A stretch of 38,108 bases of DNA from Sandarakinorhabdus cyanobacteriorum. GTDB lineage: Bacteria > Pseudomonadota > Alphaproteobacteria > Sphingomonadales > Sphingomonadaceae. The position numbers and the translations under genes were made by a program. The notes under the pieces are model-generated. The model was not told the DNA's origin and made no database searches. It was given only the letters and a program-made list of their open reading frames with translations. Below, one piece after another: positions 5,529 through 30,985 of the stretch (the first letter of the stretch is position 1; every line of letters starts with the position of its first letter). The DNA lies in NCBI RefSeq assembly GCF_002251755.1, contig NZ_NOXT01000130.1:992-39099 (forward strand), in the 5' to 3' direction.

Positions 5529-6773
5529 TCAATCGTTGGCAAAGGCCGGCGCCGCATCCAGATCATCAAGGCCCATCGGCCTGCCGCCAAACAGATAGGG
5601 ATAATGATATTCGCGCAAGGCCCGGTGCCAGGCCCGCACCCGCGCCCGAAAGGCCAGATCGGCGGCAACATCGCTGCCGGCCAGATGCTGCAAGGCCTGC
5701 GCCGCCTTCAACGGCGGCAACAGCCAGCCCAGGCGCTGGGCCAACGCCTCCCGCCGGGCAATGCCGGCCTCGCGCGCGGCGCTGTCGGCGGCAACAGCCA
5801 GGTCGCCCAGATGCTGGAAGGCGAAATACCATTTCCATTCAAAGGCAAGACCGGTTGCGGCCTGGCTGGCATAGGCCGGATACTGCGCCACAAAGCGCGC
5901 CATGGTCTGGGCCTTGGGCCGATCCCATCCGGCATGCACCTCCTCGCGGTTTTCCCGGGCAATGGCCGCAGCATCGGGCAGCGGCACAGCGGCATTGATC
6001 GCAAGGTGCGCCGCCGCCGGCACCACCAGCGTGATCGCAAACCACAGGCCGGCCAGCACCGCGGCCTGGGTGGCCGATGCCGCGGCCGTGCGCGCCACCG
6101 CCAGGGTGACCAGCGCCCAAAATGCCAGGCTGGCCAGCACCAGGGCCGCCGCCCCTGCCAGCCGGGCCGGTGCCGTGCCTTCGATCAGGCCGGCCGCCCC
6201 AAGCGGCAGCAGCAGCGCCAGCGCGACACCCGACACCCGCAGCAGCGCGCGCGGCGACCACAGCCGCCACCGCGCCCGGGGCAGGCTGTCGAGTGCGGCC
6301 AACCGGCCGGCTTCCCGCTCGCCCGACCAGAGATCATGCAGCAAGGCGATCAGCAGCAAGGGCGCCAGATACAAAGTGACAAAGGCAAAATCGAAGCGTC
6401 CGGCCAGCAGCAGTTCCGGGTTGGCGGCTTCATTGTCGTTGATCTGGCCTTCCAGGGCCAGGATGCGGATGCGCAGGATGGCCGGCACCGCATCACCGCG
6501 CGCTGGCGCCAAAAACGCCAGATCGCCGGGCGTGCGCCAGGCCGGGAAGTTGCGATAATAGCCGAACTCGCCTGCATCACCGTGGGCAAAGCTGGCGGTG
6601 GCGGCCGTTTCCCGCGCCTCCAGCGCCCGCACGTGGGCGATATCGGCACGGGTGCGCGCCACCTCGGCCAGGCCCAACGCCACGGCGACACCGGCCAGCA
6701 GCGCCAGCACCACCAGCCCCAGCCGTGCCGCCCCGCCGAGCAGGCGCCATTCCCGCGCCAGGCCCGCGATCAT
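5529..6773 (-). CDS. Module A ABC-2 permease, second subunit (DUF3526-type)
   Basis: A 414-residue membrane protein. The start at 6773 overlaps the stop of the preceding permease as ATGA, so translation is coupled. It has one N-terminal membrane helix, then a long extracytoplasmic region (about residues 45-145) containing EFGYYRNFPAW and NPELLLAGRFDFAFV, then several hydrophobic helices and a polar segment before the C-terminus. This is the topology of ABC-2 permeases annotated with DUF3526. It is a paralogue of the 25589-26959 gene, which shares the NPELL-AG/RG-DLGFV motif and the position as last permease after a first permease and an ATPase. It presumably forms a heterodimeric permease with its upstream neighbour; since that neighbour is interrupted, the module may be inactive. 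Substrate unknown; zinc or a zinc-ligand complex is inferred from context. Confidence 0.85.
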   Translation of the reverse strand: MIAGLAREWRLLGGAARLGLVVLALLAGVAVALGLAEVARTRADIAHVRALEARETAATASFAHGDAGEFGYYRNFPAWRTPGDLAFLAPARGDAVPAILRIRILALEGQINDNEAANPELLLAGRFDFAFVTLYLAPLLLIALLHDLWSGEREAGRLAALDSLPRARWRLWSPRALLRVSGVALALLLPLGAAGLIEGTAPARLAGAAALVLASLAFWALVTLAVARTAAASATQAAVLAGLWFAITLVVPAAAHLAINAAVPLPDAAAIARENREEVHAGWDRPKAQTMARFVAQYPAYASQAATGLAFEWKWYFAFQHLGDLAVAADSAAREAGIARREALAQRLGWLLPPLKAAQALQHLAGSDVAADLAFRARVRAWHRALREYHYPYLFGGRPMGLDDLDAAPAFAND

Positions 6774-8206
6774 GGCTGCACCCGCCGCGCGGCCCGCGCC
6801 AGTGCCAGGGCGAGCGCGGCGCCCCACAGCAGCATCACCGCCAGGCCGGGCAGCATTGCCTGCATCCGTGCCAGCGGCGAGGGCCCGGCATGGGCAAAGG
6901 GCCGTTGCTCGGCCCAGAAACGGGCGGATATCCGGCTCTGCCGCTCGGCAATGGGATCCTTGCCCCGCGCCGCATCATCGGCCGCCTTCACCGCACGAGT
7001 GTGCAGGCCATTCAGGGACTGGATCAGGCGGTACCGATGGGCTTCGGCGGCATCGAGAAAGACAAGGTGGCTGGCCAGATCGGTGGCAGCGCCGGCCATG
7101 CTGGCCTGGGCAAAGCCGATGGCCGGGCTCAGGAGGCTGGCCATGGCCAACACCCGGTGCTGGCGCTGCTAGATGGCGGCGGCCGCGGCGGCGTGATCGG
7201 CAAAGAGCCGGCTGGTCAGCCGCTCGCCTTCGGCCGACAGCGCGCCGCGATAGTTGAAGGGCAGATCCTCCACCCGCGCCACCCGATATTGCCGCAGCAA
7301 CCGCGCCTTGAAGGCGGCGAAGTGCGGATCATTGGGGTTGTGGCTGTCGCCAAGCCGGCGGAGTTCATCGTGGATCACCAGATCGGTTTCGGCCTTGGTG
7401 GGCAGCGGATGCGCCAGCCCGGCCACGCCGGCCGCCGCGCGCGGCACCAGCACCACCAGCACCGCCCAGGCCAGCACCAGGCCAAGCAGCGCCGCCTGCG
7501 CGGTGCGCGCCAGCACCGACACCAGGGTGATGCCCAACACCCATAGTGCCAGCCACAGCAGCGCCGCCAGCGCCATCACCAGCGCCACACCCGCATCCGC
7601 CGGGCTCTGCCAGGCGGCCCAGCCCAGTGCCAGCAGCGCCGGCACCGCCGCCACCCCGGCGACACCGGCCAGGGCCAGCGCCTTGCCGGCCACCAGCCGC
7701 GCCGGGGGCAGCCCCTGCGCAATCTGCTGGATCAACAGGCCGCTCTGCCGTTCCGCCACGATCATCTGAAAGCCAACGAACACCAGCAGCAACGGCACCA
7801 GCACGCGCAGCACGAAGGCCGGGGTGAGCTGGCCAAAACGGATCAGGCCCGAGGATTCGCGCGCCGCGCCCAGCGTGGTGGCGTTCTGGCGATGGCCCTC
7901 CAGATAGAGGAGCGAGCCGGCATAGGCGTCAACGCCCGGCTCGAAGGCGGCAAGGCCACTCAAGGGCCGCAGCGCATAAGTGCCATAATGCACCATGCGA
8001 TGGGGATGGCGATCGGGCTGGTTGGCAAAGGCCTGGTTGGCCGCGGCCTGGGCCGTGGCGCGGTTTGCCGCGATGCGGCTGGCCTCGCTGGCACCGGTGA
8101 TAGCGGCAATGGCCGACAGCATGACCAGCAGCACCAGCGCCACCACCGCCAGGCGGGAGCGCGCGAACAGCCGATACTGGGCCGAGGCCACACGCCAGAT
8201 TGTCAT
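6770..8206 (-). pseudogene. Module A ABC-2 permease, first subunit, interrupted by in-frame TAG
   Basis: The reading frame runs from ATG 8206 (ATGA overlap with the ATPase stop) to TGA 6770, 478 codons, and is broken only by TAG at codon 346 (7171-7169). Upstream are a first membrane helix, an extracytoplasmic region with HYGTYALRPLSGLAAFEPG, and the main helix bundle. Downstream, in the same frame, follow VLAMASLLSPAIGFAQ, AEAHRYRLIQSLNGLH and a last membrane helix. The intact paralogue at 26956-28374 (472 aa) aligns colinearly across the stop (LRLAALLSPLVPLQN, AEAHRRRIISLLN). This is a point nonsense change, probably from CAG (Gln), since the next codons read CAG CGC CAG. It could be a recent mutation, a sequencing error or, less likely, a suppressed amber codon. 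A GTG six codons after the stop could reinitiate a 127-residue tail, which would not be a working permease by itself. Confidence 0.85.
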
Positions 8207-8928
8207 GCCGACACAAAGCCGTTGTGCAACTGGTTGAGATCAAAGCGCGGGCTATCCGCCGCCGCTTGCCATTCCCGTGCCAGCCGGCCACCGGCCAAGA
8301 GGCCGATGCGGCCCGCCACATCGGCTGCCCCGAACAGATCATGGGTGACCATCAACACCGCCACGCCGCGCGCCGCAACGTCCGCCACCAGGACGTGAAA
8401 ATCGCGGGTCGCCGCCGGATCCAGGCCAGACGTGGGCTCGTCCAGCAGCAGCAGCGGGGTCTGCCGCAGCAAGGCCAGCGCGATCCCGGTCTTCTGGCGC
8501 ATGCCCTTGGAAAAGCCGCCCACCGGCCGGTCCCAGGCACTCTGGGCCAGCTTCACCGCGCAAAGCGCATCGGCAACTGCGCCAGCCGCGCGCGGCGTGC
8601 CGGCGAGATCGAGGAAATAGTCGATATTCTCCCGCGCCGTAAAACTGGGATAGAGCGCAACATTTTCAAGTAGATAGGCGGTCGCAGCGCGCACCGCATC
8701 GGGCGCGGTGGCCGGATCATGGCCCGCCACCGCGATGCGCCCACCGCTGCGCGGCAACAGGCCCAACAGGGCAAACAAGGTGGTCGATTTGCCGGCGCCA
8801 TTGCCGCCCAGCAAGGCATAGACGTCGCCGGGTTCCAGGCTGAGCGACAGGCCATCCACGATGCGGCGGCCAGCGCGTTCGACCACCAGCCCATCAATGG
8901 CCAGCACCGGGGCCAGCGGGGCGGCCAT
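8203..8928 (-). CDS. Module A ABC transporter ATP-binding protein
   Basis: A 241-residue ABC ATPase: Walker A GGNGAGKST (41-49), signature FSKGMRQKTGIALAL, Walker B LLLLDEPTSGLDP, H-loop VTHDLFGAADVAG. The start at 8928 is chosen because its ATG overlaps the TGA of the TonB receptor (TGATG); the gene ends in an ATGA overlap with the first permease. The closest relative in the window is the module B ATPase (28371-29090), which shares the SKGMRQK signature and the HD-x-F motif after the H-loop histidine. These are ATPases of the GldA/NosF type that drive ABC-2 permeases, not ZnuC-type importers; no periplasmic binding protein gene is present. It should energise the two downstream permeases. Confidence 0.92.
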   Translation of the reverse strand: MAAPLAPVLAIDGLVVERAGRRIVDGLSLSLEPGDVYALLGGNGAGKSTTLFALLGLLPRSGGRIAVAGHDPATAPDAVRAATAYLLENVALYPSFTARENIDYFLDLAGTPRAAGAVADALCAVKLAQSAWDRPVGGFSKGMRQKTGIALALLRQTPLLLLDEPTSGLDPAATRDFHVLVADVAARGVAVLMVTHDLFGAADVAGRIGLLAGGRLAREWQAAADSPRFDLNQLHNGFVSA

Positions 8929-11051
8929 CAGAACTTGAACCGAACCGCCACGGTGCCGGCGCGCGGCTGGCCCGGCTGCACCCAAAGTTGCGCGAAGCTG
9001 TTGGTGTAATAGGTGGCGTTGAACAGGTTGCTGACCTCGGCAAAAATCTCGACACGCTCGCTGATGTCGGCCCGCGCAAACAGCCGTGCCAGCGTGTAGG
9101 CCGGCAGGAAGAACTGGGTGGCGGTTTCGCCCAGCCGGCCGCCGGTGTGCTGCACGCCGCCGCCCAGGGTCAGCTTCACATCATCGGTTATCGCAATCGC
9201 CTTGGCCGCTTGCACGTTGAACTGATGGCGCGGAATGTTGATCAGCCGGTCACCCACGCGGATGTTCAGGCTGAAATTGGGATCGAGCACGGCGGCGCGG
9301 GCGGTGGCATCAACAAAGGCATAGCTCAGCAGCAGATCGACATCGCCGGGCAGCTTGCCGTTCAGATCAACCTCCAGACCGCGGCTGCGGGCCCGGCCGA
9401 TCGGCACCGAAAAGCCGGGGTTGGCCGGATCGGCGGCCAGCACATTGTCCTTGGTAAGGTTGAACAGCGCGATGGTGCCGGTCAGCTTGCCGTCGAGCAG
9501 ATTGAGCTTGGTGCCGATCTCGGCCGAGCGGCTGGTTTCGGGGTTGAAAATGCGCCCGGCCACATCGGCGCCGATGTTGGCGCGAAAGCCCTCGCCATAG
9601 GCGGCATAGAAGGACAGGGTGGGATTGGCTTCATACACGATGCCAGCCTGCGGCGAGAAGCGGTTGAAATCGCGGGCACTGGCCACGCCATTGGCACGAT
9701 TGAGCGTGGTCAGCGAGAAATCGTCATAACGGCCGCCCAGCCGGATCTGCACGTCGCCGCCCAGATCAATCTGATCCTGGACATAAAGGCCAAAGGCCTT
9801 TTGCGTGTCGAGCCGGTTGGTCTGCGGGCCCGGCGTGGGTAGCGGGAAACGGCCATAGACCGGCGCGAAGATATCGATGTCGTTCGATTGCTGGGCGGTG
9901 GTGGTGGCGCCGATCGCTGCCGGGCGGAAGCGCAGGAAGAGCTGGCTGTTTTCGAACCGGTCATAGTCGGCGCCAAACAGCACGCGGTGTTTCAGGCCGC
10001 CGGTTTCGAGCCGGCCCTGCACTTCGCCGCGCAGCACCTGATGTTCGGCATCATAATCGCGGAAGCGGCGCTGCCGCGACAGCGACCGGCCATCGCGGCC
10101 CAGGCGCTGGCGGCTGCCGGCCAGTTCGGCTTCGGTGGAAAAGCCGGTCAGGCGCGTGTCGCGGTGCTGGCCGCCGATCAGGATCGACCAGTCCGCATTG
10201 AAGTCATGGCTCAGCTGCAGCTGGTGGCCGGTGACCTCGGCATCCAGCGGGCCGTCGCCCGGCTCGCCCAGGAAGGTGCGGCGGCTCATGGCGCCTAACT
10301 GGCCATTGATGGCAACGACACCGCGATCAAACTGCGCTTCGGCGCGGGTCAGCTCCAGCTCATAGGTCAGCGCTGTCGCCTCGCCCAGCTTGACCAGCAC
10401 GGATGGCGTGAAACCCCAACGCTGGGACCGCGTGCCGCGGAAGCTGCCGGCATCCTCATAAAAACCGATCAGCCGCACGGCCGCCGTCTCGCCGGCCGCC
10501 AGATTGACATCGGCATCCACGCGCTGCCGGTCCCAGCTGCCGGCCTGCACGCCGATGGTGCCCCGCGTGTCGAAATCCGCCTTCTTGGTGACGATGTTGA
10601 TCACGCCGCCCGGTTCACCCCGGCCATAAAGTGCGGCCTGCGGACCCTTCAACACTTCGATCTTCTCGACGCCGGACACATCGCGGCTGCCGCCAAAGCC
10701 GCGGCCATTGTTGTAGCCATTGACGAGATAGCCGGACGGCAGATTTTCATCCCCGGCAAAGCCGCGCACGGCAAAGGCATCCCAGAGGCCGCCGAAATTG
10801 TTCTGCCGCGCCACCGAGGCGTTGAGATCAAGCGCATCGGTGAGGCGCAGCACATTGTTGTTGTTCAGCCAGGTCTGATCGATCGTGGTGATCGCGGCCG
10901 GGGTTTCCTGCACCGTGAAATCGCCGCGATAGGGCTGGCGGCTGGCGGTGACGGTGATTTCCGCCGCGGCATCGCCGCCGTCATCGGCTGCCGCCGCCAG
11001 GGCCGGCATCGCCGTGCCCGCCAACAACAGCATCATCATGGTGCGAATCAT
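8928..11051 (-). CDS. Module A TonB-dependent receptor
   Basis: A 707-residue outer-membrane receptor. It has a signal peptide with hydrophobic core MMMLLLAGTAMPALA, then a TonB box EITVTA (31-36). The plug domain is typical of siderophore-type receptors (IEVLKGPQAALYGRGEPGG, then NIVTKK), followed by a 22-strand-type barrel ending in the aromatic-terminated strand VAVRFKF. The ATG at 11051 is preferred over upstream in-frame starts because the signal peptide begins there. Upstream, 39 bases before the start, lies a Zur-like element shared with the COG0523 gene of module B. It is the first gene of a four-gene coupled set with an ABC ATPase and two ABC-2 permeases, so receptor and inner-membrane machinery probably serve one substrate. 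From memory, the Caulobacter Zur regulon has an operon of similar design (ZnuK with ZnuGHI); that comparison needs checking. Confidence 0.9.
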   Translation of the reverse strand: MIRTMMMLLLAGTAMPALAAAADDGGDAAAEITVTASRQPYRGDFTVQETPAAITTIDQTWLNNNNVLRLTDALDLNASVARQNNFGGLWDAFAVRGFAGDENLPSGYLVNGYNNGRGFGGSRDVSGVEKIEVLKGPQAALYGRGEPGGVINIVTKKADFDTRGTIGVQAGSWDRQRVDADVNLAAGETAAVRLIGFYEDAGSFRGTRSQRWGFTPSVLVKLGEATALTYELELTRAEAQFDRGVVAINGQLGAMSRRTFLGEPGDGPLDAEVTGHQLQLSHDFNADWSILIGGQHRDTRLTGFSTEAELAGSRQRLGRDGRSLSRQRRFRDYDAEHQVLRGEVQGRLETGGLKHRVLFGADYDRFENSQLFLRFRPAAIGATTTAQQSNDIDIFAPVYGRFPLPTPGPQTNRLDTQKAFGLYVQDQIDLGGDVQIRLGGRYDDFSLTTLNRANGVASARDFNRFSPQAGIVYEANPTLSFYAAYGEGFRANIGADVAGRIFNPETSRSAEIGTKLNLLDGKLTGTIALFNLTKDNVLAADPANPGFSVPIGRARSRGLEVDLNGKLPGDVDLLLSYAFVDATARAAVLDPNFSLNIRVGDRLINIPRHQFNVQAAKAIAITDDVKLTLGGGVQHTGGRLGETATQFFLPAYTLARLFARADISERVEIFAEVSNLFNATYYTNSFAQLWVQPGQPRAGTVAVRFKF

Positions 11052-11089
11052 GCCAACCCCAATCCTGTTCGGTTCTGTTCGGGCTGCGA

Positions 11090-11104
11090 GATACAAGATA
11101 ACAT
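11090..11104. promoter_or_regulatory. Predicted Zur-type operator of module A
   Basis: GATACAAGATAACAT stands 39 bp upstream of the TonB receptor start. It matches 14 of 15 bases of the element upstream of the COG0523 GTPase (GATACAAAATAACAT on the minus strand at 30979-30965). The ATAACAT half-site is that of Zur boxes. No Zur gene is present in the window, so the regulator is inferred. Confidence 0.6.
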
Positions 11105-11143: not shown

Positions 11144-12184
11144 TCAGGCAGTGGCACGCACCACCAGTTCGGGCGGCAGCACCAGGCTTTCCGTCTTCTC
11201 GCCGGCCAGCCGGCGCAGCAACAGGTCCACCAGGCCGCGGGCACCGGCCGCGATGTCCTGCCGGATGGTGGTGAGCGGCGGCACGGTCTGCCCAGCCAGC
11301 GGCAGATCATCAAAGCCCACCAGCCGCATGCGCTGCGGCACGGCCAGGCCGCGATCCTGCAGCGCCTTCAGGCAGGCCACCGCCAGCGTGTCGGTCGCGG
11401 CGAAAATCCCATCGATCTGGCCGGCGTGGCGGGCCAGGTGGCCGGCAATCTCATCGGGCATGCGATCAATCGCCAGATGGGTGGGGCAGGCCATGATCGG
11501 CACCCCGGCCCGTGCCGCCACATCACCGGCCCCGGCAAAGCGGGCGGCAAATTCCATCGGCTCGGTATCGCCCAGGAACATCAGGCTGGTCGCCCCGGCG
11601 GCGATCAGCTGCTGGGCCGCCAGCCGCCCGCCCAGCCGGTTGTCGGTGCCCACCACGCAATGGCGCTGGCCCTGCTGGTGGTTGCCCCACACCACCATCG
11701 GCAGATAGGCGGCGGCCGCCTCCTCGATCCGGTCGAACTGGTCCGATTGGCCGATGACGATCAGGCCGTCGACCATGCCCGAACCGGTGAAGCGGGCCAG
11801 CCAATCCTCGTCGCGATCCGGGATCACCCGGCGCAGCATCAGGTCATAGCCATGCTCGGTCAGCTCGTCGGCTAGGTGGCCGAGCAAGGTCATGAAGAAA
11901 CTGTCGGAAATCTGCTGGCGCCGGTCATGGCCCAGCGGAATGGCCACGCCCACCACGCCGGTTTTCTGGCGGCGCAGGTTGCTGGCCATCTGGTTCAGTT
12001 GAAAGCCGTGTGTCCGCGCCAGCTGCTGGATGCGATCACGGGTGCGGGCGTTGACCAGTGCATTGCCGGCCAGCGCGCGCGACACGGTGCCGGGCGACAC
12101 GCCGGCCAGCCGCGCCAGATCGGTGATGGTGCGCACCTGGCCATCGGCCAGCGAGGTTTCGAGGCTGTCGTCGGGCATCGCCAT
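11144..12184 (-). CDS. LacI-family repressor of the sucrose locus
   Basis: A 346-residue LacI/GalR regulator. The N-terminal helix-turn-helix and hinge are clear: TITDLARLAGVSPGTVSRAL (19-38), then HGFQLNQMASNLRR, where the hinge helix has the NQMASNLR form of the usual N..AR.L motif. The periplasmic-binding-protein-like effector domain follows, with MVDGLIVIG, DNRLGGRLAAQQLI, DGIFAATDTLAVACLKAL and the dimer region GFDDLPLAGQTVPPLTTIRQD. Its start overlaps the MFS stop as TGATG, so repressor and transporter are co-translated. Two CAAACGTTTG palindromes in the divergent intergenic region at 13584-13616 are the likely operators. The inducer is probably sucrose, fructose or a derivative, judged from neighbours. 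Confidence 0.93.
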   Translation of the reverse strand: MAMPDDSLETSLADGQVRTITDLARLAGVSPGTVSRALAGNALVNARTRDRIQQLARTHGFQLNQMASNLRRQKTGVVGVAIPLGHDRRQQISDSFFMTLLGHLADELTEHGYDLMLRRVIPDRDEDWLARFTGSGMVDGLIVIGQSDQFDRIEEAAAAYLPMVVWGNHQQGQRHCVVGTDNRLGGRLAAQQLIAAGATSLMFLGDTEPMEFAARFAGAGDVAARAGVPIMACPTHLAIDRMPDEIAGHLARHAGQIDGIFAATDTLAVACLKALQDRGLAVPQRMRLVGFDDLPLAGQTVPPLTTIRQDIAAGARGLVDLLLRRLAGEKTESLVLPPELVVRATA

Positions 12185-13509: not shown

Positions 13510-13583
13510 GGCCACTCCTCCCCGCGTGCCGCCTCTGCCGGACTGCACTGCACTTCCCTGCCTGCCACAGAATCGGCGAAATT

Positions 13584-13593
13584 CAAACGTTTG
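13584..13593. promoter_or_regulatory. LacI-family operator 1 (CAAACGTTTG)
   Basis: This perfect 10-bp palindrome has a central CG, the hallmark of LacI/GalR operators (in context TTCAAACGTTTGCA). Its centre is 23 bp from that of the second copy, about two helical turns, so two dimers could bind on one face. It lies between the divergent MFS-LacI and TonB genes. Confidence 0.85.
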
Positions 13594-13620
13594 CATTTTT
13601 TGTTTGCAAACGTTTGTAAC
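13591..13620 (+). promoter_or_regulatory. Candidate promoter of the sucrose TonB-GH68-ROK operon
   Basis: TTGCAT (13591-13596) and TGTAAC (13615-13620) with an 18-bp spacer form a plausible -35/-10 pair. Both hexamers overlap the two palindromic operators, so repressor binding would directly block RNA polymerase. The ATG follows 45 bases after the -10 element. Confidence 0.5.
13607..13616. promoter_or_regulatory. LacI-family operator 2 (CAAACGTTTG)
   Basis: This is the second copy of the same 10-bp palindrome, in context TGCAAACGTTTGTA (13605-13618). The identical core and fixed spacing to copy 1 argue strongly that both are sites for the locally encoded LacI-family protein. Confidence 0.85.
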
Positions 13621-13665
13621 GAAGCTATGCCTGTCCGCAACCATAAGGGAGAGGAGCAGTATCGC

Positions 13666-16131: not shown

Positions 16132-16142
16132 TCGACTCCCCC

Positions 16143-16172
16143 GGCCGGGGTTGCCACGTGGCAGCCCCGGCC
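16143..16172 (+). terminator. Strong intercistronic hairpin after the sucrose TonB gene
   Basis: GGCCGGGGTTGCCAC (16143-16157) is followed directly by its near-exact complement GTGGCAGCCCCGGCC (16158-16172), with one G-T wobble. The stem begins 12 bases after the TonB stop and 45 bases before the GH68 start. No U-run follows. It may be a partial terminator or an mRNA-stabilising hairpin that sets the receptor-to-enzyme ratio. Confidence 0.5.
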
Positions 16173-21497: not shown

Positions 21498-23429
21498 TCA
21501 GAAATCGATGGTCAGATACCCACCCACCCGCCGGCCGGGGATCAGATCATAGGCGCCAGCCCCCTGCAGTTCAAAGCCTTGCAGATCGGTCAGATTTTCC
21601 ACCTGCAGGCGCAGCAGGGCGGATTGCCCGGCCAGCCTGAAGCTGTAGCGCGCGCCCAGATCGACCAGCGTGCGCGCAGGGATGCGGGTCTGCGCGCTCA
21701 CCGTTGCCACTTCGGGGCTGCGATGGCTGATGGCCAGATCAACGCCCAGGCCATCAAGCAGCGGTGGCCGCCAATCAAGGTTCAATTCGATGCGGCGGCT
21801 GATCGCCCCCACCGGCTGGTCCCCCACCCGGCCCAGCGCCACCCCGGCTCCCGTCACCCGCGGCCACAACAGCACGCTGCCCGCCACCATGCTGAACCGG
21901 CTGGTCACTGCACCCGAAACCGAAAGCTCGATGCCGCGATTGATCACCTCGCCCAGCGCGTCAAAGTGGTTGCCGGCATCCAGGTTGAAATAGGGCTTTC
22001 GCACATCAAACAGGCCAGCCACCAGCCGCACATCGCCGCTGATCGCCCAGCGCAGGCCGGCATCATGCTGGCGCGTGCGGATCGCCGGCAGCGCCTCGTT
22101 GCGGTTGGCGGCATTGCCCGGCGCGATGCCGCTTTCCTCCAGCCCCGTCACCGTGCCGGCATAGGCGATCAGCCTGGGCGTCAACTCAACGGCCAGCGTC
22201 GCGTTGTACAGCAGCGGCGATGCATCGGTCACCACCGGCGCCAGGCTGGGCAGGCCGATGCGCTTGGCATAGTCCGTCGTCTGCACCCCAAGGCTCAGCT
22301 CGCCAACGCCGGGCCAGCGCGCTTCCCAGGCGATGCCGGCAATGATCTGCCGCACCCGATCCTTCTGCTGCTCGCTAAATTCCAGCCGGGGCGGCGGCGC
22401 CCGGGTGGGGGCAAAGATGCTGGTGGCGCCCAGATCGATGAAATCCGATCCGTCAAAGCGCCGGTCCCCGGCCCGCGCCCGCAGGCTGGCGTGGATGCGA
22501 TGGGTGCGCGGCCCGTCGATGATGGTGCGCGTCAACCGCAATTCGCCGCTGGTGCTGGCAAATTTCACCGGCGGATCGGCAATCACCAGCTGGTTGCCCC
22601 GGCCATCGGCCGCCACATCGGTGATCAGGTTGGCAAAACCGCGCGCATCATCGAACAGCGAGCGGAACAGGCCGGCCCGCACCTCCCACCCCGGCCCCGG
22701 CCGCCAAGTGCCCAACACCCCGGCATTGAAGGCCACCCCGCGATACCGCGCCCATTCCGGCCCCTTGAACAGCCGGCGCGGCAGCCGCGGCGGCAAGCCC
22801 TCACCGGCGGGCAGGAAGATCGGCCCGGTCTGGTCAAACCCCTCCGACCGCGCCAGAAAGGGCAGAATTTCCACCGCATCCGACGGGGCATAGCGCGCCG
22901 CCAGCGATACCTGCCAGAAACTGGCGCGGGTGGCATTGTAGAACCGGTCGTCAAACTGCGCCGCCCCGGCCGCCATGCTCAGGCCCTTGGCCACCGGCAG
23001 ATTGGCATCCAGCTCCAGCGCCGCATTTCCCCACTGGTTCAGCGCGCCCAGCACGCTCAAGGCCGCATCGTCGCCCGGCTTGCGGAAGGCATAATCCACA
23101 ATGCCGGTGGGCGCCGGAAACGGGCTGCCCAACGCCGAAAGCCCCACCCGGATGGTGGTGGCCCGGCGCAGGCGCGGGTTCAGCCCCCAGACCTGATCGA
23201 AATACAGGCCATCGATGCGCACATTGCCGGCCGCCGTCGGCGAAAATCCGCGCACATTGCCGGCGTTATACAGCCCGATCGTTTCCCGCCCGATGGAGGT
23301 GCCAAAGGCATCGCTGGCGCCGCGCACGGCATTTTCGGCCGCGCGCGCCCCGGTGGCGGCGGTGCTGTTGTCCACCGCCTGCGCCAGGGCTGGCCCGGCC
23401 AGCAGCCCGGCCAGCAGCACCAGCCGCAT
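21498..23429 (-). CDS. Module B second TonB-dependent receptor, divergent subfamily
   Basis: A 643-residue beta-barrel receptor with signal peptide MRLVLLAGLLAGPALAQA and a C-terminal strand RVGGYLTIDF. The N-terminal domain is unusual. No classical TonB box is visible; instead there is AAENAVRGASDAFG, then SIGRETIGLYNAGNVRGFSP and AAGNVRIDGLYFDQ, which take the place of the normal plug opening. The gene at 33313-35232 has almost the same block (AAENALQAADDGFG, AIGRESIGLYSADDIRGF, AGNVRLEGLYFDP) and is a clear paralogue. The start overlaps the stop of the upstream receptor gene (TGATG), so the two are co-translated; after the in-frame TGA upstream, its expression may be affected by polarity. 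Ligand unknown; a metal or metallophore is inferred from the operon. Confidence 0.88.
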   Translation of the reverse strand: MRLVLLAGLLAGPALAQAVDNSTAATGARAAENAVRGASDAFGTSIGRETIGLYNAGNVRGFSPTAAGNVRIDGLYFDQVWGLNPRLRRATTIRVGLSALGSPFPAPTGIVDYAFRKPGDDAALSVLGALNQWGNAALELDANLPVAKGLSMAAGAAQFDDRFYNATRASFWQVSLAARYAPSDAVEILPFLARSEGFDQTGPIFLPAGEGLPPRLPRRLFKGPEWARYRGVAFNAGVLGTWRPGPGWEVRAGLFRSLFDDARGFANLITDVAADGRGNQLVIADPPVKFASTSGELRLTRTIIDGPRTHRIHASLRARAGDRRFDGSDFIDLGATSIFAPTRAPPPRLEFSEQQKDRVRQIIAGIAWEARWPGVGELSLGVQTTDYAKRIGLPSLAPVVTDASPLLYNATLAVELTPRLIAYAGTVTGLEESGIAPGNAANRNEALPAIRTRQHDAGLRWAISGDVRLVAGLFDVRKPYFNLDAGNHFDALGEVINRGIELSVSGAVTSRFSMVAGSVLLWPRVTGAGVALGRVGDQPVGAISRRIELNLDWRPPLLDGLGVDLAISHRSPEVATVSAQTRIPARTLVDLGARYSFRLAGQSALLRLQVENLTDLQGFELQGAGAYDLIPGRRVGGYLTIDF

Positions 23430-25513
23430 CAGAAGCGCACCAGCGCGCTGGCGCGCAGCGTGCGCGGCTGGCCGGGATAGAAATTGTTGTTGGTGTTGCC
23501 GTTCTCGAAATAACGCGCGTTGCCGATGTTGATCAGGTTCAGCTGCACCTGCACCGCCTCCAGCGGCTGCAGATAGAGCGCCGCATCAAACCGGGCATAG
23601 CCGGGCAGGCGGAAGCTGTTGGCCGGATCGATGAAGCGCGCATCAACGATGGTGGCACCCACGCCCACGCCGACATGGCGGGGAACATCACCCCGCGCCC
23701 ACAGGCTGGCGGCATGGCGCGGCACCTGGTTCAACTGCCGGCCCAACAGGGTGCGATCCGCCGTCACCTCGGCATCGGTAAAGGCATAGGCCGCTTCGAA
23801 CGCCAGCCCCTTCACCGGCTGCAGCGCCAGATCCAGCTCGATGCCCTGGCTGCGCTGTTCGCCGCTCTGCCGGTCGGCCGGTGATGGCGCCGGTTCGGCC
23901 ACCCGCACATTGGTCTTGGTGATGCGGAACCAGCTCGCCGATGCACGCAACAGGCCGTCGCGGCTTTCCCAGCGGGCACCCGCTTCAAACTGTTCGCCCA
24001 GCGATGGCAGCGCCACCGCCCGGTCCACCAGCGGCCGCGTGCTGGTTTCGGGGTTGAAGCTGCGGCCCCAGTTGGCAAACAGCGCAAAGCCATTGCCGGG
24101 CAGGATCGTCACCCCCAGCCGCGGCGTCACCGCCGTGTCTTCGGTGCGCCCGGTCACGCCGCTGATATTGTCGGTGAAGCGGGCGCGGCTGCGCTCCACG
24201 CGCAGGCCGGCGGTGGTGCGCAGCCATGGCATTCAGGCGCTTTCCAACTGCACCAGCGCGCCCAGCCCGTCGGCACGCGACCGGCTGCCCACGATGGCCG
24301 CCGTGGTCGGGCTGTAAAGCGCGCCGCCCACCGGCGCAAAGATGTTCACCGGCGCGTTCACCGTGGCGCGGTTGATGGTGGAAAAGCCGCTGTTCTCGCT
24401 CCAGTCGGCCGAGATCAGCAGCGTGTGGGCGATGCCACCGGTGCGCGCCTTCACCACCAGATCAAGCTGCGCGCTGGCATCATCCTCGCGGTCGATGGTG
24501 ATCTGGTTGCGGCGGTTCAGCACGCCGCCCGCGGTCAACAGCGGCACCGTCGCCCCGCCGCCCACCGGGAAGAAATAGGCCCCGCGCGCATCACCCCGGC
24601 CCCAGCCGCCGCCCATACGCAGCAGCACATCATCGCTGAATTCATGGGTCAGCCGCGCGGTGATGGTGCGGGTTTCATTGCGAAAATTGTCGGCCGGATC
24701 GCCCAGGAAGCGCCCCGGCGGCAGGTCGGTCATCAACCCCAACAGGCCGGGCGCGGCGGCAAGGCCACGATCGAACACGCCATCCCGGTCCAGCCACTCC
24801 CCCTCGATCACGATGCGGGTGCGCTCACCGGGCTGAAGGGCAATGGCCGGCGCCAGATAGCGGGTCTCGTTGGCCACCGCGTCGCGAAACCCGTCGCCAT
24901 TCTCCCACACGCCGTTGACGCGCAGGCCAATGCCGCTGCCCAGCGCCAGGTTCACATCGGCGGTGCCACGCACCAGCCCGTCGTCGTCCACCATCAGCCC
25001 GGCACTGCCGAAATTGCGCGCCACATCCGGCTGCTTCGTCACGATGTTCACGGCCCCGCCCGGCTCCAGCCGGCCATAGAGCATGGAGGCCGGGCCCTTC
25101 AGCACCTCGATCCGCTCGATATTCTGCACCTCGCTCACCGGCCAGGCGACACCCTGGCGATAACCGTTGCGCAGATTGGTCTGGGCCACAAAGCCACGCA
25201 GGCGAAAGCGCGTGTTGAACCCGCCGATGCCGCCCACCGGATTGGTGCCCGAAACCGTGCGCAGCGCATCGGTCAGGCTGACCAGCCCGCGATCGGCCAG
25301 CAGCGCGGCGCCCACCGTGTCAACACTGAACGGCAGTTCCAGCGCCGGCGTGTCGGTGCGGGTGGCGGCCAGGGTGCGCGGGGCATAACGGTCGATGCTG
25401 GCCGTCACGATGATTTCGGCCGCCTCTGTATCCGCATCGGCTGCCAGCGCCGGCGTGGCCCCAAAGCACAGACCAACGCCCAGCAACAGGATCAGACGGG
25501 TGGTCGGGGGCAT
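23429..25513 (-). pseudogene. Module B TonB-dependent receptor, interrupted by in-frame TGA
   Basis: A 695-codon frame from ATG 25513 to TGA 23429, broken by TGA at codon 427 (24235-24233). The N-part has a signal peptide (LILLLGVGLCFGATPALA), TonB box EIIVTA (33-38), siderophore-type plug with IERIEVLKGPASMLYGRLEP and NIVTKQP, and the first barrel strands. The C-part continues in the same frame (MPWLRTTAGLRVERSRA...) and ends in a normal last strand, RTLRASALVRF. Together they have the right length and order for one receptor, so a single base change is the simplest cause. The stop is followed at once by ATG, so reinitiation could make a 267-residue barrel fragment, which is unlikely to fold alone. 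The start at 25513 has GGAG six bases upstream. Misread base and real nonsense mutation cannot be separated here. Confidence 0.83.
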
Positions 25514-25525
25514 GAGCATCTCCGT

Positions 25526-25543
25526 GTAATGTCATAACATGCC
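25526..25543. promoter_or_regulatory. Predicted Zur-type operator before module B TonB genes
   Basis: ATGTCATAACAT (25529-25540) is a 12-bp dyad with one mismatched pair, in context GTAATGTCATAACATGCC. Its ATAACAT half is identical to that of the two other predicted sites (11090-11104, 30965-30979). It lies in the only sizeable gap of module B, just upstream of the ribosome binding site of the TonB gene. Confidence 0.5.
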
Positions 25544-25588: not shown

Positions 25589-26959
25589 TCAATCGGGCTG
25601 CAGCCGGTTGATCTGGCGCACCGCGGCCAGCAGCAGCCCGCTGGCCAGCGCCAGCAGCCAGGCCAGGGCGCCCAGCGGCGGTGCGGCCGGGGCCGGCGCC
25701 ACAAAGCGCGGCAGGCGGTCAAGATCGGCCGGCGTCATCGGCTGTGGCCGTGTTGCCAGGCGGGCCAGCGCCGCACGCAGCTGCGCCACATGGGCGGCGG
25801 CGGCATCCTGCACCTGGGCCACCGCCCCGGCATCGCTGCCGGCGGCCCGGGCCAGCGCCTGCGCCGCCAGCATCGGCGGTGCCAGCAGGGCCAATTGGTC
25901 CAGCGTTTCCTGCCGCCCGGCGCGGCGGGCGGCGTGATCGGCCATGATCGGCGCGATGGCGGCAGCAACCTTGCCGGTCACGTCCAGCGTGCGCGCCAGC
26001 GCGTCGCGACGGCTGGCCAGTTCGTCGGAAACCGCCTCGGCATGGTCATTGTCCCACTGCGCCGTGGCCGCCACTTCGGCGGCGCGGGCCTTGGCAATCA
26101 CGGCATAGCGCGACGGCAATGGCTGGGCGAGGCCAACCAGCGCGGTGAGCAGCGCCGGCAGCACCAGCGTGAACAGCGCCCAGATCGCCACCAGTGCCAG
26201 GGCAGCAGCATCGGCCGAGCTGCGCAGGCTGTTGACCAGCAGCACCAGCGCCCACCACAGCAGCAGGCTGGCCAGCGCGATCAGGCCCCACCAGATCAGC
26301 GCCGTGGTGCGACCGGGCAGATCCGGCCCGCTCAGCCCCAGCCACAGCAGGGCCAGCGCAATCGGTGCCAGCACCAGGGCGAGACGCGGCAGCGATCGCG
26401 CCAGCAACAGCCGGCCCACCCCGCCGCCCTGCGCCAGCACCAGCCGCAGCGCACCCGAATCGCGATCGGCCGGGATCATGCCATGGCCCAGCACCACCAG
26501 CAGCAAGGGCGCGATCACCAGCACGACAAAGCCCAGATCCAACCCGCCACGCATCAGCAGTTCGGGATTTTCCAGCGTGGACCGGGCAAACAGCGTGTCG
26601 GCCCGGCTGCGCAGGCCGGCCGCCCCGGCATCGGGCGCCAGCGGGGCCTGGCCGGCGCTGGCATCGATCAGCGGCGGCAGCGGCGCAATCACCGGCATCC
26701 GCACCCGGATCGGCAACAGCACCGCATCGGCCGCCGGCATGCCCCTGGCCATGCCGGCGCGCAGCCGTGCATCCGCCTCGGCAAGCTCGCTGCTGGCCGC
26801 CGCCCGGCTGGCCAGCTGGGCCGCCAGCAGCGCCCGGCCATTGGCCAGCGCCAGGATGATGGCCCCCATCAACACCGCCAGCACCGCCAGCGCCAGCCGG
26901 CTGCGCAGCAGCCAGCGGCCTTCCATCGCCAGCAGCGACGGGCGCGCCAGCGCCGTCAT
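25589..26959 (-). CDS. Module B ABC-2 permease, second subunit (DUF3526-type)
   Basis: A 456-residue membrane protein. The start at 26959 overlaps the first permease's stop as ATGA. One N-terminal membrane helix (LALAVLAVLMGAIILALA) is followed by a large extracytoplasmic region (about residues 45-170, containing STLENPELLMRGGLDLGFVV), several helices, a second polar stretch with QWDNDHAEAVSDELASRRDAL, and a C-terminal helix. It is a paralogue of the module A second permease (5529-6773), which has the equivalent NPELLLAGRFDFAFV. It probably pairs with the first permease and the module B ATPase. No solute-binding protein is encoded, so direction of transport is open; ABC-2 permeases are usually exporters. 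Confidence 0.86.
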   Translation of the reverse strand: MTALARPSLLAMEGRWLLRSRLALAVLAVLMGAIILALANGRALLAAQLASRAAASSELAEADARLRAGMARGMPAADAVLLPIRVRMPVIAPLPPLIDASAGQAPLAPDAGAAGLRSRADTLFARSTLENPELLMRGGLDLGFVVLVIAPLLLVVLGHGMIPADRDSGALRLVLAQGGGVGRLLLARSLPRLALVLAPIALALLWLGLSGPDLPGRTTALIWWGLIALASLLLWWALVLLVNSLRSSADAAALALVAIWALFTLVLPALLTALVGLAQPLPSRYAVIAKARAAEVAATAQWDNDHAEAVSDELASRRDALARTLDVTGKVAAAIAPIMADHAARRAGRQETLDQLALLAPPMLAAQALARAAGSDAGAVAQVQDAAAAHVAQLRAALARLATRPQPMTPADLDRLPRFVAPAPAAPPLGALAWLLALASGLLLAAVRQINRLQPD

Positions 26960-28374
26960 TGCTGGCCCGCCGCCAGCCGACGGCCGGCCAGCCGCAACAG
27001 GCCCAGGGCCGCCAGCAGCCACAGGCCCAGCGCCAGCGCATCAGGCCAGCTGCGCGCCAGTGCGGCGGCGGTGCCCGGCGGCTGCCAGGCAAAATCCGGC
27101 GCCCGCCGCCACAGCGCGGCATCGGCGTGATAATCAAATCCGGCGGCCCCGGCGTGCGCGGTCATGTCGGCATTCAGCAGGCTGATGATGCGGCGGCGAT
27201 GGGCTTCGGCCCGGTCCTGGAAATCGCGCTGCACGGCGGCGTCGCTGCCGGCCAGCGCCATGGACAGATTCTGCAACGGCACCAGCGGCGACAGCAGCGC
27301 GGCAAGGCGCAAGGCGGCGCGGCCAGCTTCATGGGTGGCGGCCAATCGGCCCCAGGCCGCATCAAACACCCGGTTGCCATGCTGCTCGGCCGCTTCCAGG
27401 CGCAGGCCATCGATGTTGACCGGCAGATCCTCCAGCCGGGTGACACCATAACGCGCCATCACTGCCGCTTCGAATGCCTTGCCGTCCTTGCCGAACGGGT
27501 CGTGGCCGCTTTTCATCTGCGCCTGCACGCCGGCGGCAAAATCATGCGGGGTCGGCACCGGGGCGGCCTGCATGGCAAGCCCGCTGCCCAGCCGCGGCAC
27601 GATCAGCAGCAGCACCAGCCACAGGCCCACCAGCAGCAGCCGCGCCTGCGCCGCCGTCGCGCACAGCGCCGAAACCGCCACCGCCAGCGCCGCCAGGATG
27701 GCAAAATACAGCAGATAGGCCGACAGCCACAGCAGCAGCGCCACCCCATCCACCGGCCCGGCCAGCAGCGTGGCCACCAGCGCCGCCGCCAGCAATGGCA
27801 GCACCAGCACGGCGGCAATGCGCCCCAGCGCCAGATATTTGGCCGGCATCACCTGCCCGGCCGCAAGCCCGCTGGCCAGCATCAGGCGCAGCGTGCCGGC
27901 CTCCCGCTCCCGCGCCACCAGCCCGGCGCCGATGATGAACAACAGCAGCGGCAGCACATATTGGAACACCCAGGCCGCGCTGAAGCGGCCCAGATCCAGC
28001 CCGCCGGCCAGATCCTCGGCCGGGCGGGCCTGCGCCGGATTGCGATTGTGCGCCTCCAGCCAGATGGCGCTGCCGGCATAGGGCAGCACGCCGGGATCGA
28101 GCAGCGCCATCGGCGGCAGCGGCCGGAACGCCCAGAAGGCGAAATGCGCCGCGCTGTGCGGATTGCGCGCGCCCTGGCCTTCCCAGGTCACCCGGTCGGC
28201 CGCGATGGTGGCGCGCCGGTCGGCATCATGGGCGGTCACCTCTACAAAGGCCGCCACCACCGCCGTCACCGCCAGCAGGGCAACCAGCAGGCTGATCAGC
28301 GCCAGCCGCCAATCGCGCCGATATTCGGCCCAATCCTTGGCCGCCACGCTGGCCGCGATCGCGGCCGGGCTCAT
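26956..28374 (-). CDS. Module B ABC-2 permease, first subunit (intact paralogue)
   Basis: A 472-residue inner-membrane permease, intact, with an N-terminal helix (LISLLVALLAVTAVVAAF). The extracytoplasmic region contains NPHSAAHFAFWAFRPLPP and LDPGVLPYAGSAIWLEAHN, then come the helix bundle (PLLLFIIGAGLVAREREAGTL), a second polar region and a last helix. It starts in an ATGA overlap with the ATPase gene and ends in an ATGA overlap with the second permease. It is the reference for the interrupted module A copy: both share the H-x-x-x-x-A-x-RPL motif, the PG-x-x-x-YAGS motif and the LLSP-to-AEAHR region. The RERE/RESG segment after the third helix is typical of NosY-like ABC-2 permeases. Confidence 0.88.
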   Translation of the reverse strand: MSPAAIAASVAAKDWAEYRRDWRLALISLLVALLAVTAVVAAFVEVTAHDADRRATIAADRVTWEGQGARNPHSAAHFAFWAFRPLPPMALLDPGVLPYAGSAIWLEAHNRNPAQARPAEDLAGGLDLGRFSAAWVFQYVLPLLLFIIGAGLVAREREAGTLRLMLASGLAAGQVMPAKYLALGRIAAVLVLPLLAAALVATLLAGPVDGVALLLWLSAYLLYFAILAALAVAVSALCATAAQARLLLVGLWLVLLLIVPRLGSGLAMQAAPVPTPHDFAAGVQAQMKSGHDPFGKDGKAFEAAVMARYGVTRLEDLPVNIDGLRLEAAEQHGNRVFDAAWGRLAATHEAGRAALRLAALLSPLVPLQNLSMALAGSDAAVQRDFQDRAEAHRRRIISLLNADMTAHAGAAGFDYHADAALWRRAPDFAWQPPGTAAALARSWPDALALGLWLLAALGLLRLAGRRLAAGQQ

Positions 28375-29090
28375 GCCGCCCGCTCCGCCATGTGGGTCAG
28401 ATACATATGCTCCAGCTCGCCGGCCGACAGGCTGGCCGGATCGATCATCGCCACCAGCCGGCCGTGGCGCATGATGCCGATGCGGCTGGCCACCTCCTTG
28501 GCGCGGAAGATGTCGTGGGTGGAAATCAGAAGGGCAACGCCGCCCGCCGCCGTCTCGCGCAGCACGCCCACCAGATCATTGGCTGCCGCCGGGTCCAGGC
28601 CCGACAAGGGCTCGTCCAGCAGGATGACGCGCGCCTCCTTCATCAGGGCAATCGCCAGGCCCAGTTTCTGGCGCATGCCCTTGGAATAGGTGCCGGCCGG
28701 GCGCAGGATGGCATCGGCGGGAAAGCGCAGCCGCGCCAATATCGCATCACGGCGGGCGGGATCGACGGCGACGCCTGCCAACCCGGCAAAGAAGGCCAGA
28801 TTTTCCGCGCCCGACAGGCTGGGATAAAGGCTCACCACCTCGGCAACATAGCCCAGCCGGGCCCGCGCCGCCGCCGGGTCCTCGGCCACCACCAGCCCAT
28901 CCACCAGCGCGGCGCCTGCCGTCGGCGCGGTGAAGCCCAGGAACAGGTTCAATGTCGTGGTCTTGCCGGCACCATTGGCGCCCAGCAGGCACAGGGTTTC
29001 GCCGGCCGCCACCGCGAGGTTCAGCCCATCCAGCGCCAACGCCGCGCCATAACGCTTGGTCAGCCCGCGCGCTTCCAGCACCGCGCCCAT
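28371..29090 (-). CDS. Module B ABC transporter ATP-binding protein
   Basis: A 239-residue ATPase with Walker A GANGAGKTT (37-45), signature YSKGMRQKLGLAIAL, Walker B VILLDEPLSGLDP and H-loop ISTHDIFRAKEVA. The ATG at 29090 overlaps the DUF1826 stop as TGATG, which fixes the start over longer in-frame options. It resembles the module A ATPase and NosF/GldA-type proteins that energise ABC-2 permeases. It should act with the two permeases that follow. Its linkage to a COG0523 GTPase and DUF1826 gene is the main reason to link the transporter with metal limitation. Confidence 0.92.
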   Translation of the reverse strand: MGAVLEARGLTKRYGAALALDGLNLAVAAGETLCLLGANGAGKTTTLNLFLGFTAPTAGAALVDGLVVAEDPAAARARLGYVAEVVSLYPSLSGAENLAFFAGLAGVAVDPARRDAILARLRFPADAILRPAGTYSKGMRQKLGLAIALMKEARVILLDEPLSGLDPAAANDLVGVLRETAAGGVALLISTHDIFRAKEVASRIGIMRHGRLVAMIDPASLSAGELEHMYLTHMAERAA

Positions 29091-29730
29091 CAGCAACAGT
29101 CCATTTGGGCCGGGTTGATCACCAGCACCAGCCGCCGCTGCCCCGATCCGGCAATCGGCGGAGAGCGGTGGATGATCGGGCTGTCGGTCAACAGCTTGCC
29201 CTTGAACAACGCCACCTCGCCGGCCAGCAGCTGGCGCAGCTCCAGTCGCTCCAGTGCCACGCCATCGGCCAGGGCGGCGGCATCCGCGTTGGAAAGCCAT
29301 TGGCTACCCGGCCCGGCATAGGATGTGATCAGCCGCAGCCCCACATAATCGGCGTGGAACTTGCGGCAGGCATCTCCCGTGATGATCTCCAGCCGCAAAT
29401 CAACCAACGGGCTTTTCATGCGGGCTGCGGCGTGCTGGGCCAATTCGGCCACATCAGCCACCAGAACGGGCACCGGCGGCCAGCCGGCGGCCACCAGCGC
29501 CTCGGCCAGCGCCACCGCCGCCTGTTCGGCGGCCACGCTCAAGCGGATTTCGCCAGTGCCACGGCGCAGCACCTCCCCCGCCGCAGCCGTCAGGGCACGC
29601 GCCAGCCGGCGCTGCCACACCGCCAGATTGATCGCGGGATCATCACTCGCGCCCAGCACATCCGGGGTCGGCCCCATGGCCACATGGGTGATCGGCGGAA
29701 ACAACACGTCCGCCACGCGGGCCAGCGCGC

Positions 29731-29734
<4 letters not shown>
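29090..29734 (-). CDS. DUF1826 domain protein
   Basis: A 214-residue soluble protein that I recognise as DUF1826. It has an N-terminal helical part, a central [34 protein letters not shown] with conserved Cys and His, then [18 protein letters not shown] and a C-terminal [12 protein letters not shown] strand. The KFHADYV...HRSPP...RLVLVI pattern resembles a cupin/2-oxoglutarate-dioxygenase-like fold with two spaced histidines; this is only a resemblance. It starts in an ATGA overlap with the COG0523 gene and is followed by the ABC ATPase in a TGATG overlap. DUF1826 genes are often next to COG0523 genes, and a role in metal handling is assumed but, to my knowledge, not shown. Confidence 0.82.
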
Positions 29735-30945
<1,211 letters not shown>

Positions 30946-30960
30946 CCCGGCCTCATGGAA

Positions 30961-30985
30961 TCACATGTTATTTTGTATCATGTGA
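30961..30985. promoter_or_regulatory. Predicted Zur-type operator of module B
   Basis: TCACATG (30961-30967) and CATGTGA (30979-30985) form a perfect 7-bp inverted repeat around an 11-bp AT-rich core. The inner ATGTTATTTTGTATC (30965-30979) matches the module A element in 14 of 15 bases on the opposite strand. It lies directly upstream of a COG0523 zinc GTPase, a classical Zur target. Confidence 0.65.

What the first reader, a model, noticed from the sequence alone, without database searches (positions are those of the whole stretch)
5529..30985. Two paralogous TonB/ABC-2 modules sharing a near-identical operator: a predicted zinc-starvation regulon
Module A (11051-5529) and module B (30945-21498) both combine TonB receptor(s), a NosF/GldA-like ATPase and two ABC-2 permeases with large extracytoplasmic loops. 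The leading genes carry GATACAA(G/A)ATAACAT (14/15 identical), and the module B TonB pair has ATGTCATAACAT. ATAACAT is a Zur-box half-site, and module B starts with a COG0523 CxCC GTPase and DUF1826. There is no binding protein and no ZnuB-type permease, so this is not ordinary ZnuABC uptake. An ABC-2 transporter coupled to TonB receptors could export or recycle a zinc-binding ligand that the receptor brings back, or move the complex inward. From memory, Caulobacter ZnuK/ZnuGHI is the closest described design.
Basis: partly seen in the sequence, partly recalled or inferred. Interest (0 to 1): 0.85.

Follow-up and report, generated by a model that had tools for sequence, protein, structure and literature searches.

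The report
Zinc-starvation transport modules of ZnuGHI type
This bacterium carries two copies of a little-studied transporter that its zinc sensor probably switches on when zinc runs short; the design is known from one other bacterium, but how it moves zinc is still an open question.

Summary
Both modules exist as described, and the three operator-like sites fit Zur-type 17-bp palindromes (ATGTTAT-N3-ATAACAT). An independent Caulobacter Zur matrix ranks two of them first and second among the genome's 39 consensus places; places before merC-zur and a ZnuD-like receptor/His-rich pair are also in its top six. The module A site is weak here, but better versions align with it in seven orthologues. 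In relatives, 22 of 39 module upstream regions hold a box at p < 0.01, against 2 of 274 other upstream regions. A zur-like gene is present; ZnuA, ZnuB and ZIP were not found.

The regulon reading is therefore well supported. The design is not new: Caulobacter znuGHI/znuK, an ABC-2 ATPase, two ABC-2 permeases and a TonB receptor, is Zur-repressed (PMC4176598). Direction and substrate are unproven. Permease 1 has an HxxxH...ExH quartet in its first extracytoplasmic loop (39 of 41) on a fold nearest NosY, so the permease itself may bind zinc. My best guess is zinc uptake without a binding protein; NosDFY-like periplasmic metal handling is the main rival. In this assembly each module has one gene cut by an in-frame stop.

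The parts
30965..30981 (-). predicted Zur box of the GTPase-DUF1826-ABC-2 operon (ATGATAC AAA ATAACAT)
   Evidence: rank 1 of 39 places by Caulobacter matrix; a box one base different stands before ZigA in L072
29731..30945 (-). COG0523 GTPase, ZigA-like zinc metallochaperone, CxCC
   Evidence: Pfam cobW + CobW_C; NCBIfam ZigA 590.8 bits, cut-off 600
29090..29734 (-). DUF1826 protein
   Evidence: PF08856 E 2.1e-40; DUF1826-like ORFs in 9 of 38 relatives' loci
28371..29090 (-). ABC ATPase (ABCA/NosF-like)
   Evidence: PF00005; best solved chains ABCA7, ABCA3, ABCA4, ABCA1, then NosF; start chosen by eye at the overlap with DUF1826
26956..28374 (-). permease 1, ABC-2 with DUF3526; H73, H77, E107, H109 in first extracytoplasmic loop
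   Evidence: AlphaFold2 pLDDT 93.9; nearest fold NosY
25589..26959 (-). permease 2, ABC-2 with DUF3526
25524..25540 (+). predicted Zur box before the module B receptor genes (GTGTAAT GTC ATAACAT)
   Evidence: fewest mismatches in the genome, rank 2 by matrix; lies in the 69-bp gap between permease 2 and the receptor
23429..25519 (-). TonB-dependent receptor with in-frame TGA at 24233-24235 (pieces 24233-25519 and 23429-24232)
   Evidence: Plug in the first piece, barrel in the second; both pieces best with TonB-siderophor
21498..23429 (-). second TonB-receptor-like barrel, no Plug hit
   Evidence: PF00593; weak TonB-siderophor match; related genes beside modules in several relatives
11088..11104 (+). 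predicted Zur box of module A (GAGATAC AAG ATAACAT), weak
   Evidence: 3 mismatches, matrix 11.9; aligned with boxes and a constant CTTG in seven orthologues
8928..11051 (-). module A TonB-dependent receptor
   Evidence: Plug + barrel; NCBIfam TonB-siderophor 283 bits, over its cut-off
8203..8928 (-). module A ABC ATPase
   Evidence: PF00005; start chosen by eye
6770..8206 (-). module A permease 1, interrupted by in-frame TAG at 7169-7171
   Evidence: DUF3526 match runs across the stop; no stop inside the DUF3526 match in any relative's row
5529..6773 (-). module A permease 2, DUF3526
   Evidence: PF12040 103.8 bits; start chosen by eye

Best explanation
Two paralogous, Zur-repressed zinc-acquisition modules of the Caulobacter ZnuGHI/ZnuK type. 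When cellular zinc falls, Zur leaves its operators (predicted). The TonB receptors then bring zinc or zinc complexes into the periplasm (inferred from ZnuK/ZnuL mutants in Caulobacter). An ABC-2 transporter made of one ATPase and two DUF3526 permeases then handles the metal without a binding protein, taking zinc at a His/Glu site in the first extracytoplasmic loop of permease 1 and moving it into the cytoplasm (inferred). There the ZigA-like GTPase of module B would deliver it to client proteins (inferred from family). Regulation is well supported by sequence; the inward step is the least certain part.
For: Operators; relatives: 21 of 39, 22 of 39 on the repeat with other random windows, versus 2 of 274 other upstream regions. 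Zur-like gene, box at the start of merC-zur; ZnuD-like/His-rich pair with box. ZigA-like GTPase. Zur-like genes lie in 8 of 38 relatives' loci, DUF1826 in 9, MerC in 5, ZigA-like in 4. No ZnuA, no ZIP, no true ZnuB found (the one marginal ABC-3 hit is a FecCD-family permease, 267 bits, beside a PF01497 binding protein). DUF3526 rings in Caulobacter only among 14 control genomes, which by the lists is also the one control without ABC-3. His/Glu quartet in 39 of 41. Receptors beside the same core match different families (ZnuD, CirA, haem-type, siderophore type; ten picked by me, all under the models' cut-offs), so the shared substrate is more likely the metal than one ligand. No recurrent metallophore-type gene recognised among neighbours; no NRPS condensation domain and no IucA/IucC.
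Against: No ABC-2 system is known to me as a metal importer (recalled), and the nearest solved fold is NosY, which serves copper-site assembly. The His quartet is just as conserved in distant phyla where I found no Zur box, so it is not specific to the zinc-regulated subset. I had no coordinates to show that the four residues meet. The module A box is weak (15th-16th of 39). A sigma-70-type scan found no promoter match at the module B boxes. Several places of better score than module A have no zinc link that I know (for example C37:2088 and C129:7541, 17.5). Two genes are interrupted, so in this strain neither module may be complete. DUF3526 and ABC-3 are only weakly exclusive in relatives (2 shared, P = 0.05), and 68 of 118 genomes have neither (counted), so other zinc routes must exist. 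MerC in the zur operon is a rival candidate for the inner-membrane step.
Confidence: 0.45

Rival explanations
1. NosDFY-like periplasmic machine: the ABC-2 complex does not carry zinc across the inner membrane but uses ATP to move metal between periplasmic partners (for example strips zinc from the receptor's cargo or loads a periplasmic protein); another protein such as MerC does the inner-membrane step.
For: Nearest solved sequence (NosY, E 6.8e-10) and fold (NosY, E 1.8e-4); NosF among the ATPase's better solved relatives; large extracytoplasmic parts in the model; MerC in the zur operon and in 5 of 38 relatives' loci.
Against: No NosD-like gene among the genes of the two operons; MerC is not always beside the module; the ATPase is closer to ABCA proteins than to NosF; the NosY match is partial (TM-score 0.41 by query, rmsd 12.5).
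Confidence: 0.25
2. Export and recycling: the ABC-2 transporter secretes a zinc-binding molecule and the TonB receptor brings the loaded form back.
For: ABC-2 systems are mostly exporters (recalled); the module receptors score best with the siderophore receptor family; no binding protein.
Against: No recurrent metallophore-type gene recognised within about 9 kb in the loci examined (a methyltransferase, short-chain dehydrogenases and GTP cyclohydrolase I do recur in 4-14 loci, with median distances of several kb); no NRPS condensation domain and no IucA/IucC in the genome; receptors of different families sit beside the same core. Opine-type or ribosomal peptide metallophores were not searched for.
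Confidence: 0.15
3. The sites belong to another Fur-family regulator (Fur) and the modules serve iron-siderophore traffic.
For: The module receptors match the TonB-siderophor family best; a strong Fur gene is present (138.8 bits).
Against: The 7-3-7 palindrome matches Caulobacter Zur sites (PMC4176598); the same boxes stand at merC-zur, ZnuD-like and ZigA-like genes.
Confidence: 0.05
4. Decaying copies: the in-frame stops are real and the modules are on their way to loss.
For: TAG in permease 1 of module A and TGA in the module B receptor; a split P450-like gene in the same window; the B-like module of G030 is also broken into pieces (L080).
Against: The other module genes are open with ordinary codon-position GC; operators retained; 130-contig draft, so base errors are possible; no stop inside the DUF3526 match in relatives.
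Confidence: 0.1

Closest known systems
Caulobacter crescentus ZnuGHI + ZnuK (CC1518-1520, CC1517), PMC4176598
   Same: ABC-2 ATPase, two ABC-2 permeases and an adjacent TonB receptor under Zur; COG0523 protein (ZrpX) in the same regulon; Caulobacter vibrioides is the only control genome with DUF3526
   Different: Here two paralogous modules lie in one 25-kb stretch, a ZigA-like GTPase and DUF1826 lead one operon, and receptors are first in the operon (A) or downstream (B) instead of divergent; Caulobacter protein sequences were not in hand, so orthology is untested
NosDFY (copper, nitrous oxide reductase assembly)
   Same: Nearest solved relative of permease 1 by profile and fold; NosF among the nearer ATPases
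   Different: No NosD, two different permeases, extra loops with a His/Glu quartet, zinc regulation
ZnuABC / AdcABC
   Same: Zur-regulated ABC system, by prediction
   Different: No ZnuA and no ABC-3 permease found in the genome
Neisseria ZnuD
   Same: A ZnuD-like receptor with its own box exists elsewhere in this genome (375.7 bits to NF038289, cut-off 950)
   Different: The module receptors match the siderophore receptor family; ZnuD is not among the matches shown

Membership tests
ZnuGHI/ZnuK-type system | ATPase + two ABC-2 permeases in one operon with an adjacent TonB receptor | tested here: met
   one gene of each module is interrupted
ZnuGHI/ZnuK-type system | Zur box upstream | tested here: met
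   predicted by consensus and by Caulobacter matrix; weak for module A; binding not tested
ZnuGHI/ZnuK-type system | Same permease family as Caulobacter ZnuH/ZnuI | tested here: inconclusive
   Caulobacter vibrioides genome rings with DUF3526 but the hit could not be tied to CC1519/CC1520
ZnuGHI/ZnuK-type system | Zinc- and Zur-dependent expression | not testable with these tools
   needs RNA or reporter assay
ZnuABC | ZnuA binding protein and ABC-3 permease | tested here: not met
   PF01297 no match in the genome; PF00950 only a hit of 21.8 bits that is a FecCD-family protein
NosDFY | NosD periplasmic partner gene | tested here: not met
   none among the operon genes; the rest of the genome was not searched for it
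NosDFY | NosY-like permease fold | tested here: met
   partial, TM-score 0.69 normalised by NosY, 0.41 by the query
Zur regulon | zur gene in the genome and sites at other zinc genes | tested here: met
   the zur-like gene scores below the Zur model's cut-off

The most novel reading that the evidence does not exclude
An ABC-2 (type V fold) transporter that imports zinc without a binding protein, with the permease's own extracytoplasmic HxxxH...ExH site taking the metal from exchangeable TonB receptors; a receptor-swapping zinc uptake core used across several phyla in place of ZnuABC.
Probability: 0.35. Interest if true: 0.75.

Novelty: new member of a known kind. Interest (0 to 1): 0.5.

Why it matters
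Caulobacter and this bacterium gave no ZnuA or true ABC-3 permease in the searches made, and I know of no proof how zinc crosses their inner membrane. These modules are obvious candidates, relatives of the permease occur in several phyla, and it has a conserved candidate metal site, so the idea of an ABC-2 metal importer can be put to a direct test by changing four residues.

Tried and rejected
Iron/Fur control: judged unlikely because the boxes also stand at zinc genes. Ligand export: lowered because no metallophore-type neighbour was recognised (clusters judged by eye, nine neighbour proteins checked with Pfam) and NRPS condensation and IucA/IucC domains were not found. Cupriavidus 'uncharacterized ABC-type transporter' for zinc resistance (PMC7912956, passages seen): a glycerol-type ABC system, unrelated. 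Exclusion of DUF3526 and ABC-3 across relatives: weak, 2 shared where about 5 are expected (the 19 ABC-3 genomes are my count of hits above 80 bits), and confounded by kinship. Finding Caulobacter ZnuH itself: not achieved; 3 of 387 genomes of the class, own included, have DUF3526. Distances between the four residues: the tool gives no coordinates. For 17 of 39 module regions in relatives no box reached p < 0.01 on the repeat; some have boxes further upstream (L079, L096, L105), L081 has none above the threshold. With a fixed score of 14 or more the contrast is smaller: 17 of 39 against 9 of 274. In named loci only 7 of 75 ATPase upstream regions reached p < 0.01; one of them (L123) is the same contig as L104 of the first set. 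A promoter scan showed nothing at the module B boxes; no tRNA in the window.

Dropped rows: six of 44 relatives' loci (L067, L069, L073, L074, L086, L101; overlaps or fragments); upstream regions under 200 bases skipped; seven duplicate contigs more left out. The ORF caller fails in AT-rich genomes (L087, L097-L101), and one search uses it for its control regions. The null windows are mostly coding; one search adds upstream regions of other called ORFs as a fairer control. Only places with up to 3 mismatches were ranked by matrix. Two peptide seeds chose the loci, so conservation there is biased; the 41-sequence set (the window's own and 40 from relatives) came from loci found by the C-terminal DUF3526 domain, with sequences taken by similarity to the window's permeases. 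The ten receptors were picked by me, most of them because they resembled ZnuD.
Full report
What is there. The window is G000:C76:992-39099 of a 3.53-Mb, 130-contig genome, in the genus group that includes G007. G007's contig C26 and Polymorphobacter multimanifer contig NZ_JACIIV010000026.1 have the same length, 50,095, so the source is probably a Sphingomonadales bacterium near that species (inference). Module A reads TonB receptor, ATPase, permease 1, permease 2; module B reads COG0523 GTPase, DUF1826, ATPase, permease 1, permease 2, TonB receptor, second receptor-like barrel. The four DUF3526 matches of the genome are these four permeases.

The operators. Read as a Zur palindrome, ATGTTAT-N3-ATAACAT, the module B receptor site has the fewest mismatches in the genome. 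Scoring the 39 places with a matrix made only from five Caulobacter sites puts the ZigA-like operon first (22.6), the module B receptor second (21.4), the ZnuD-like/His-rich divergent pair third (20.5), queC fourth (19.4), merC-zur fifth (19.2) and a tonB-like gene sixth (18.7). The queC and tonB-like sites both contain GTTATACTATCAC and could simply be promoter -10 elements. The next places (17.5 and below) have, module sites apart, no zinc link that I know. The control pattern gave 22 places against 39, so many weaker places are noise. The merC-zur box overlaps the first bases of the listed merC ORF. The module A site scores only 11.9, 15th-16th of 39, but an alignment with seven orthologues shows a constant CTTG followed by the box, as if a -35 element; the sigma-70-type scan of the module B stretch found no promoter at its boxes.

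Footprint in relatives. DUF3526 occurs in 33 of 118 genomes including the window's own and in 3 of 387 genomes of the class, own included. In 38 loci from relatives, 21 of 39 module upstream regions held a box better than 99% of random windows of the same locus. Repeating this with upstream regions of other genes as control gave 22 of 39 against 2 of 274; with a fixed score of 14 or more, 17 of 39 against 9 of 274. Genes like zur lie in 8 of the 38 loci, DUF1826 in 9, MerC in 5 and ZigA-like in 4. In the 80 best named loci of 177 confirmed, from Alpha- and Gammaproteobacteria, Acidobacteria, Myxococcota, Bacteroidota and others, 7 of 75 ATPase upstream regions reached p < 0.01, including three Luteimonas contigs; none of the seven is from Acidobacteria or Bacteroidota. 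So zinc control is clear in part of the family only.

Zinc context of the genome. There is one Fur (138.8 bits) and one weak FUR-family protein (30.9 bits) whose best NCBIfam model is Zur (60.9 bits, cut-off 167). No match was found for ZnuA or ZIP; the single marginal ABC-3 hit (21.8 bits) is a FecCD-family permease beside a PF01497 binding protein. Of 14 control genomes, Caulobacter vibrioides is the only one with DUF3526 and, by the lists, the only one without ABC-3. Across 118 relatives the two families overlap in 2 genomes (19 have an ABC-3 hit above 80 bits by my count, 33 have DUF3526; P = 0.05), a weak result; 68 have neither.

The permease. In 41 permease 1 sequences, H73 and H109 are in 41, H77 in 40, E107 in 39, all four in 39. 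They lie in the loop between the first two long helices, on the side opposite the conserved E-R-E helix (residues 156-158) that I take for the coupling helix, hence extracytoplasmic (inference). H73 and H77 are one turn apart in a predicted helix 72-78. The AlphaFold2 model, made with 65 sequences, has mean pLDDT 93.9. Its two matches with E below 0.001 are NosY chains of NosDFY, and NosY is also the only strong match of the sequence profile. The quartet is family-wide (each residue in 64 of 65 in the set chosen partly by those motifs), so it may serve any metal or be structural.

Mechanism. Shown: anatomy, operators as sequence, their recurrence, no true hit for ZnuA, ZnuB or ZIP. Inferred: Zur binding, zinc as substrate, direction. 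Receptors matching different families (ZnuD, CirA, haem-type, siderophore-type) stand beside or within about 1.5 kb of the same core (ten receptors, all under the models' cut-offs); in G015 the module B core is followed directly by the second barrel without the first receptor. A constant core with exchangeable receptors suggests that the metal, not one ligand, is what the core handles. Together with the lack of recognisable metallophore genes this makes export less likely, although the window's own module receptors score best with siderophore receptors. Between import and a NosDFY-like periplasmic role I cannot decide; I put 0.45 and 0.25.

Literature. PMC4176598 (abstract, passages, whole Discussion read): znuGHI is annotated as ABC-2 ATPase and permeases, 29-, 38- and 12-fold up in the zur mutant; znuK and znuL mutants were tested, and in the parts I read no znuGHI mutant is reported. 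PMC6103462 (passages seen) lists znuGHI among uptake systems. Searches for Zur + ABC-2 + TonB-dependent + zinc (2 papers), DUF3526 (none), znuGHI (3 papers) and zinc + ABC-2 type + TonB + Zur regulon (44 papers with at least three terms, 12 listed) showed me no study of mechanism; most subscription journals are not in this library.

Damage. Permease 1 of module A has an in-frame TAG and the module B receptor an in-frame TGA. No relative's row shows a stop inside the DUF3526 match, but the module of G030 is broken into pieces (L080). Whether the window's stops are base errors of a draft or real losses cannot be told here.

Noticed in passing
L024:7342-7358 (G000:C100): A Zur-like box (rank 4 of 39) lies about 65 bp upstream of queC and a radical-SAM gene; it may be a -10 element or a real link between zinc and queuosine synthesis.
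   Followed up: partly
L022:6356-6372 (G000:C118): A Zur-like box (rank 6 of 39) lies at the upstream edge of a tonB-like gene (PF03544), perhaps a TonB for zinc receptors.
   Followed up: partly
L127, L130, L145 upstream of the ATPase: In Polyangia/Sorangium relatives a different palindrome, TTGCAA-N5-TTGCAA, precedes the same ABC-2 module; it may be the local regulator's box.
   Followed up: no
L023:7802-8131: Small His/Asp-rich protein without any family match, divergent from the ZnuD-like receptor with a box between; a similar low-complexity hit in L139.
   Followed up: partly
window 583-5381: Downstream of module A: an ATPase and a 1199-aa membrane protein with an M1 peptidase domain, a different ABC-like pair.
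   Followed up: no
window 33256-35232: Third receptor-like barrel, similar to the second barrel of module B by eye, near a sulfatase-modifying-factor-like gene (by eye); no strong box before it.
   Followed up: no
window 31041-32506: A cytochrome P450-like gene split by a frame change (by eye), the third broken gene in the window.
   Followed up: no
window 11144-18207: LacI and, by eye, transporter, levansucrase-like and ROK kinase-like genes look like a sucrose cluster between the two modules.
   Followed up: no
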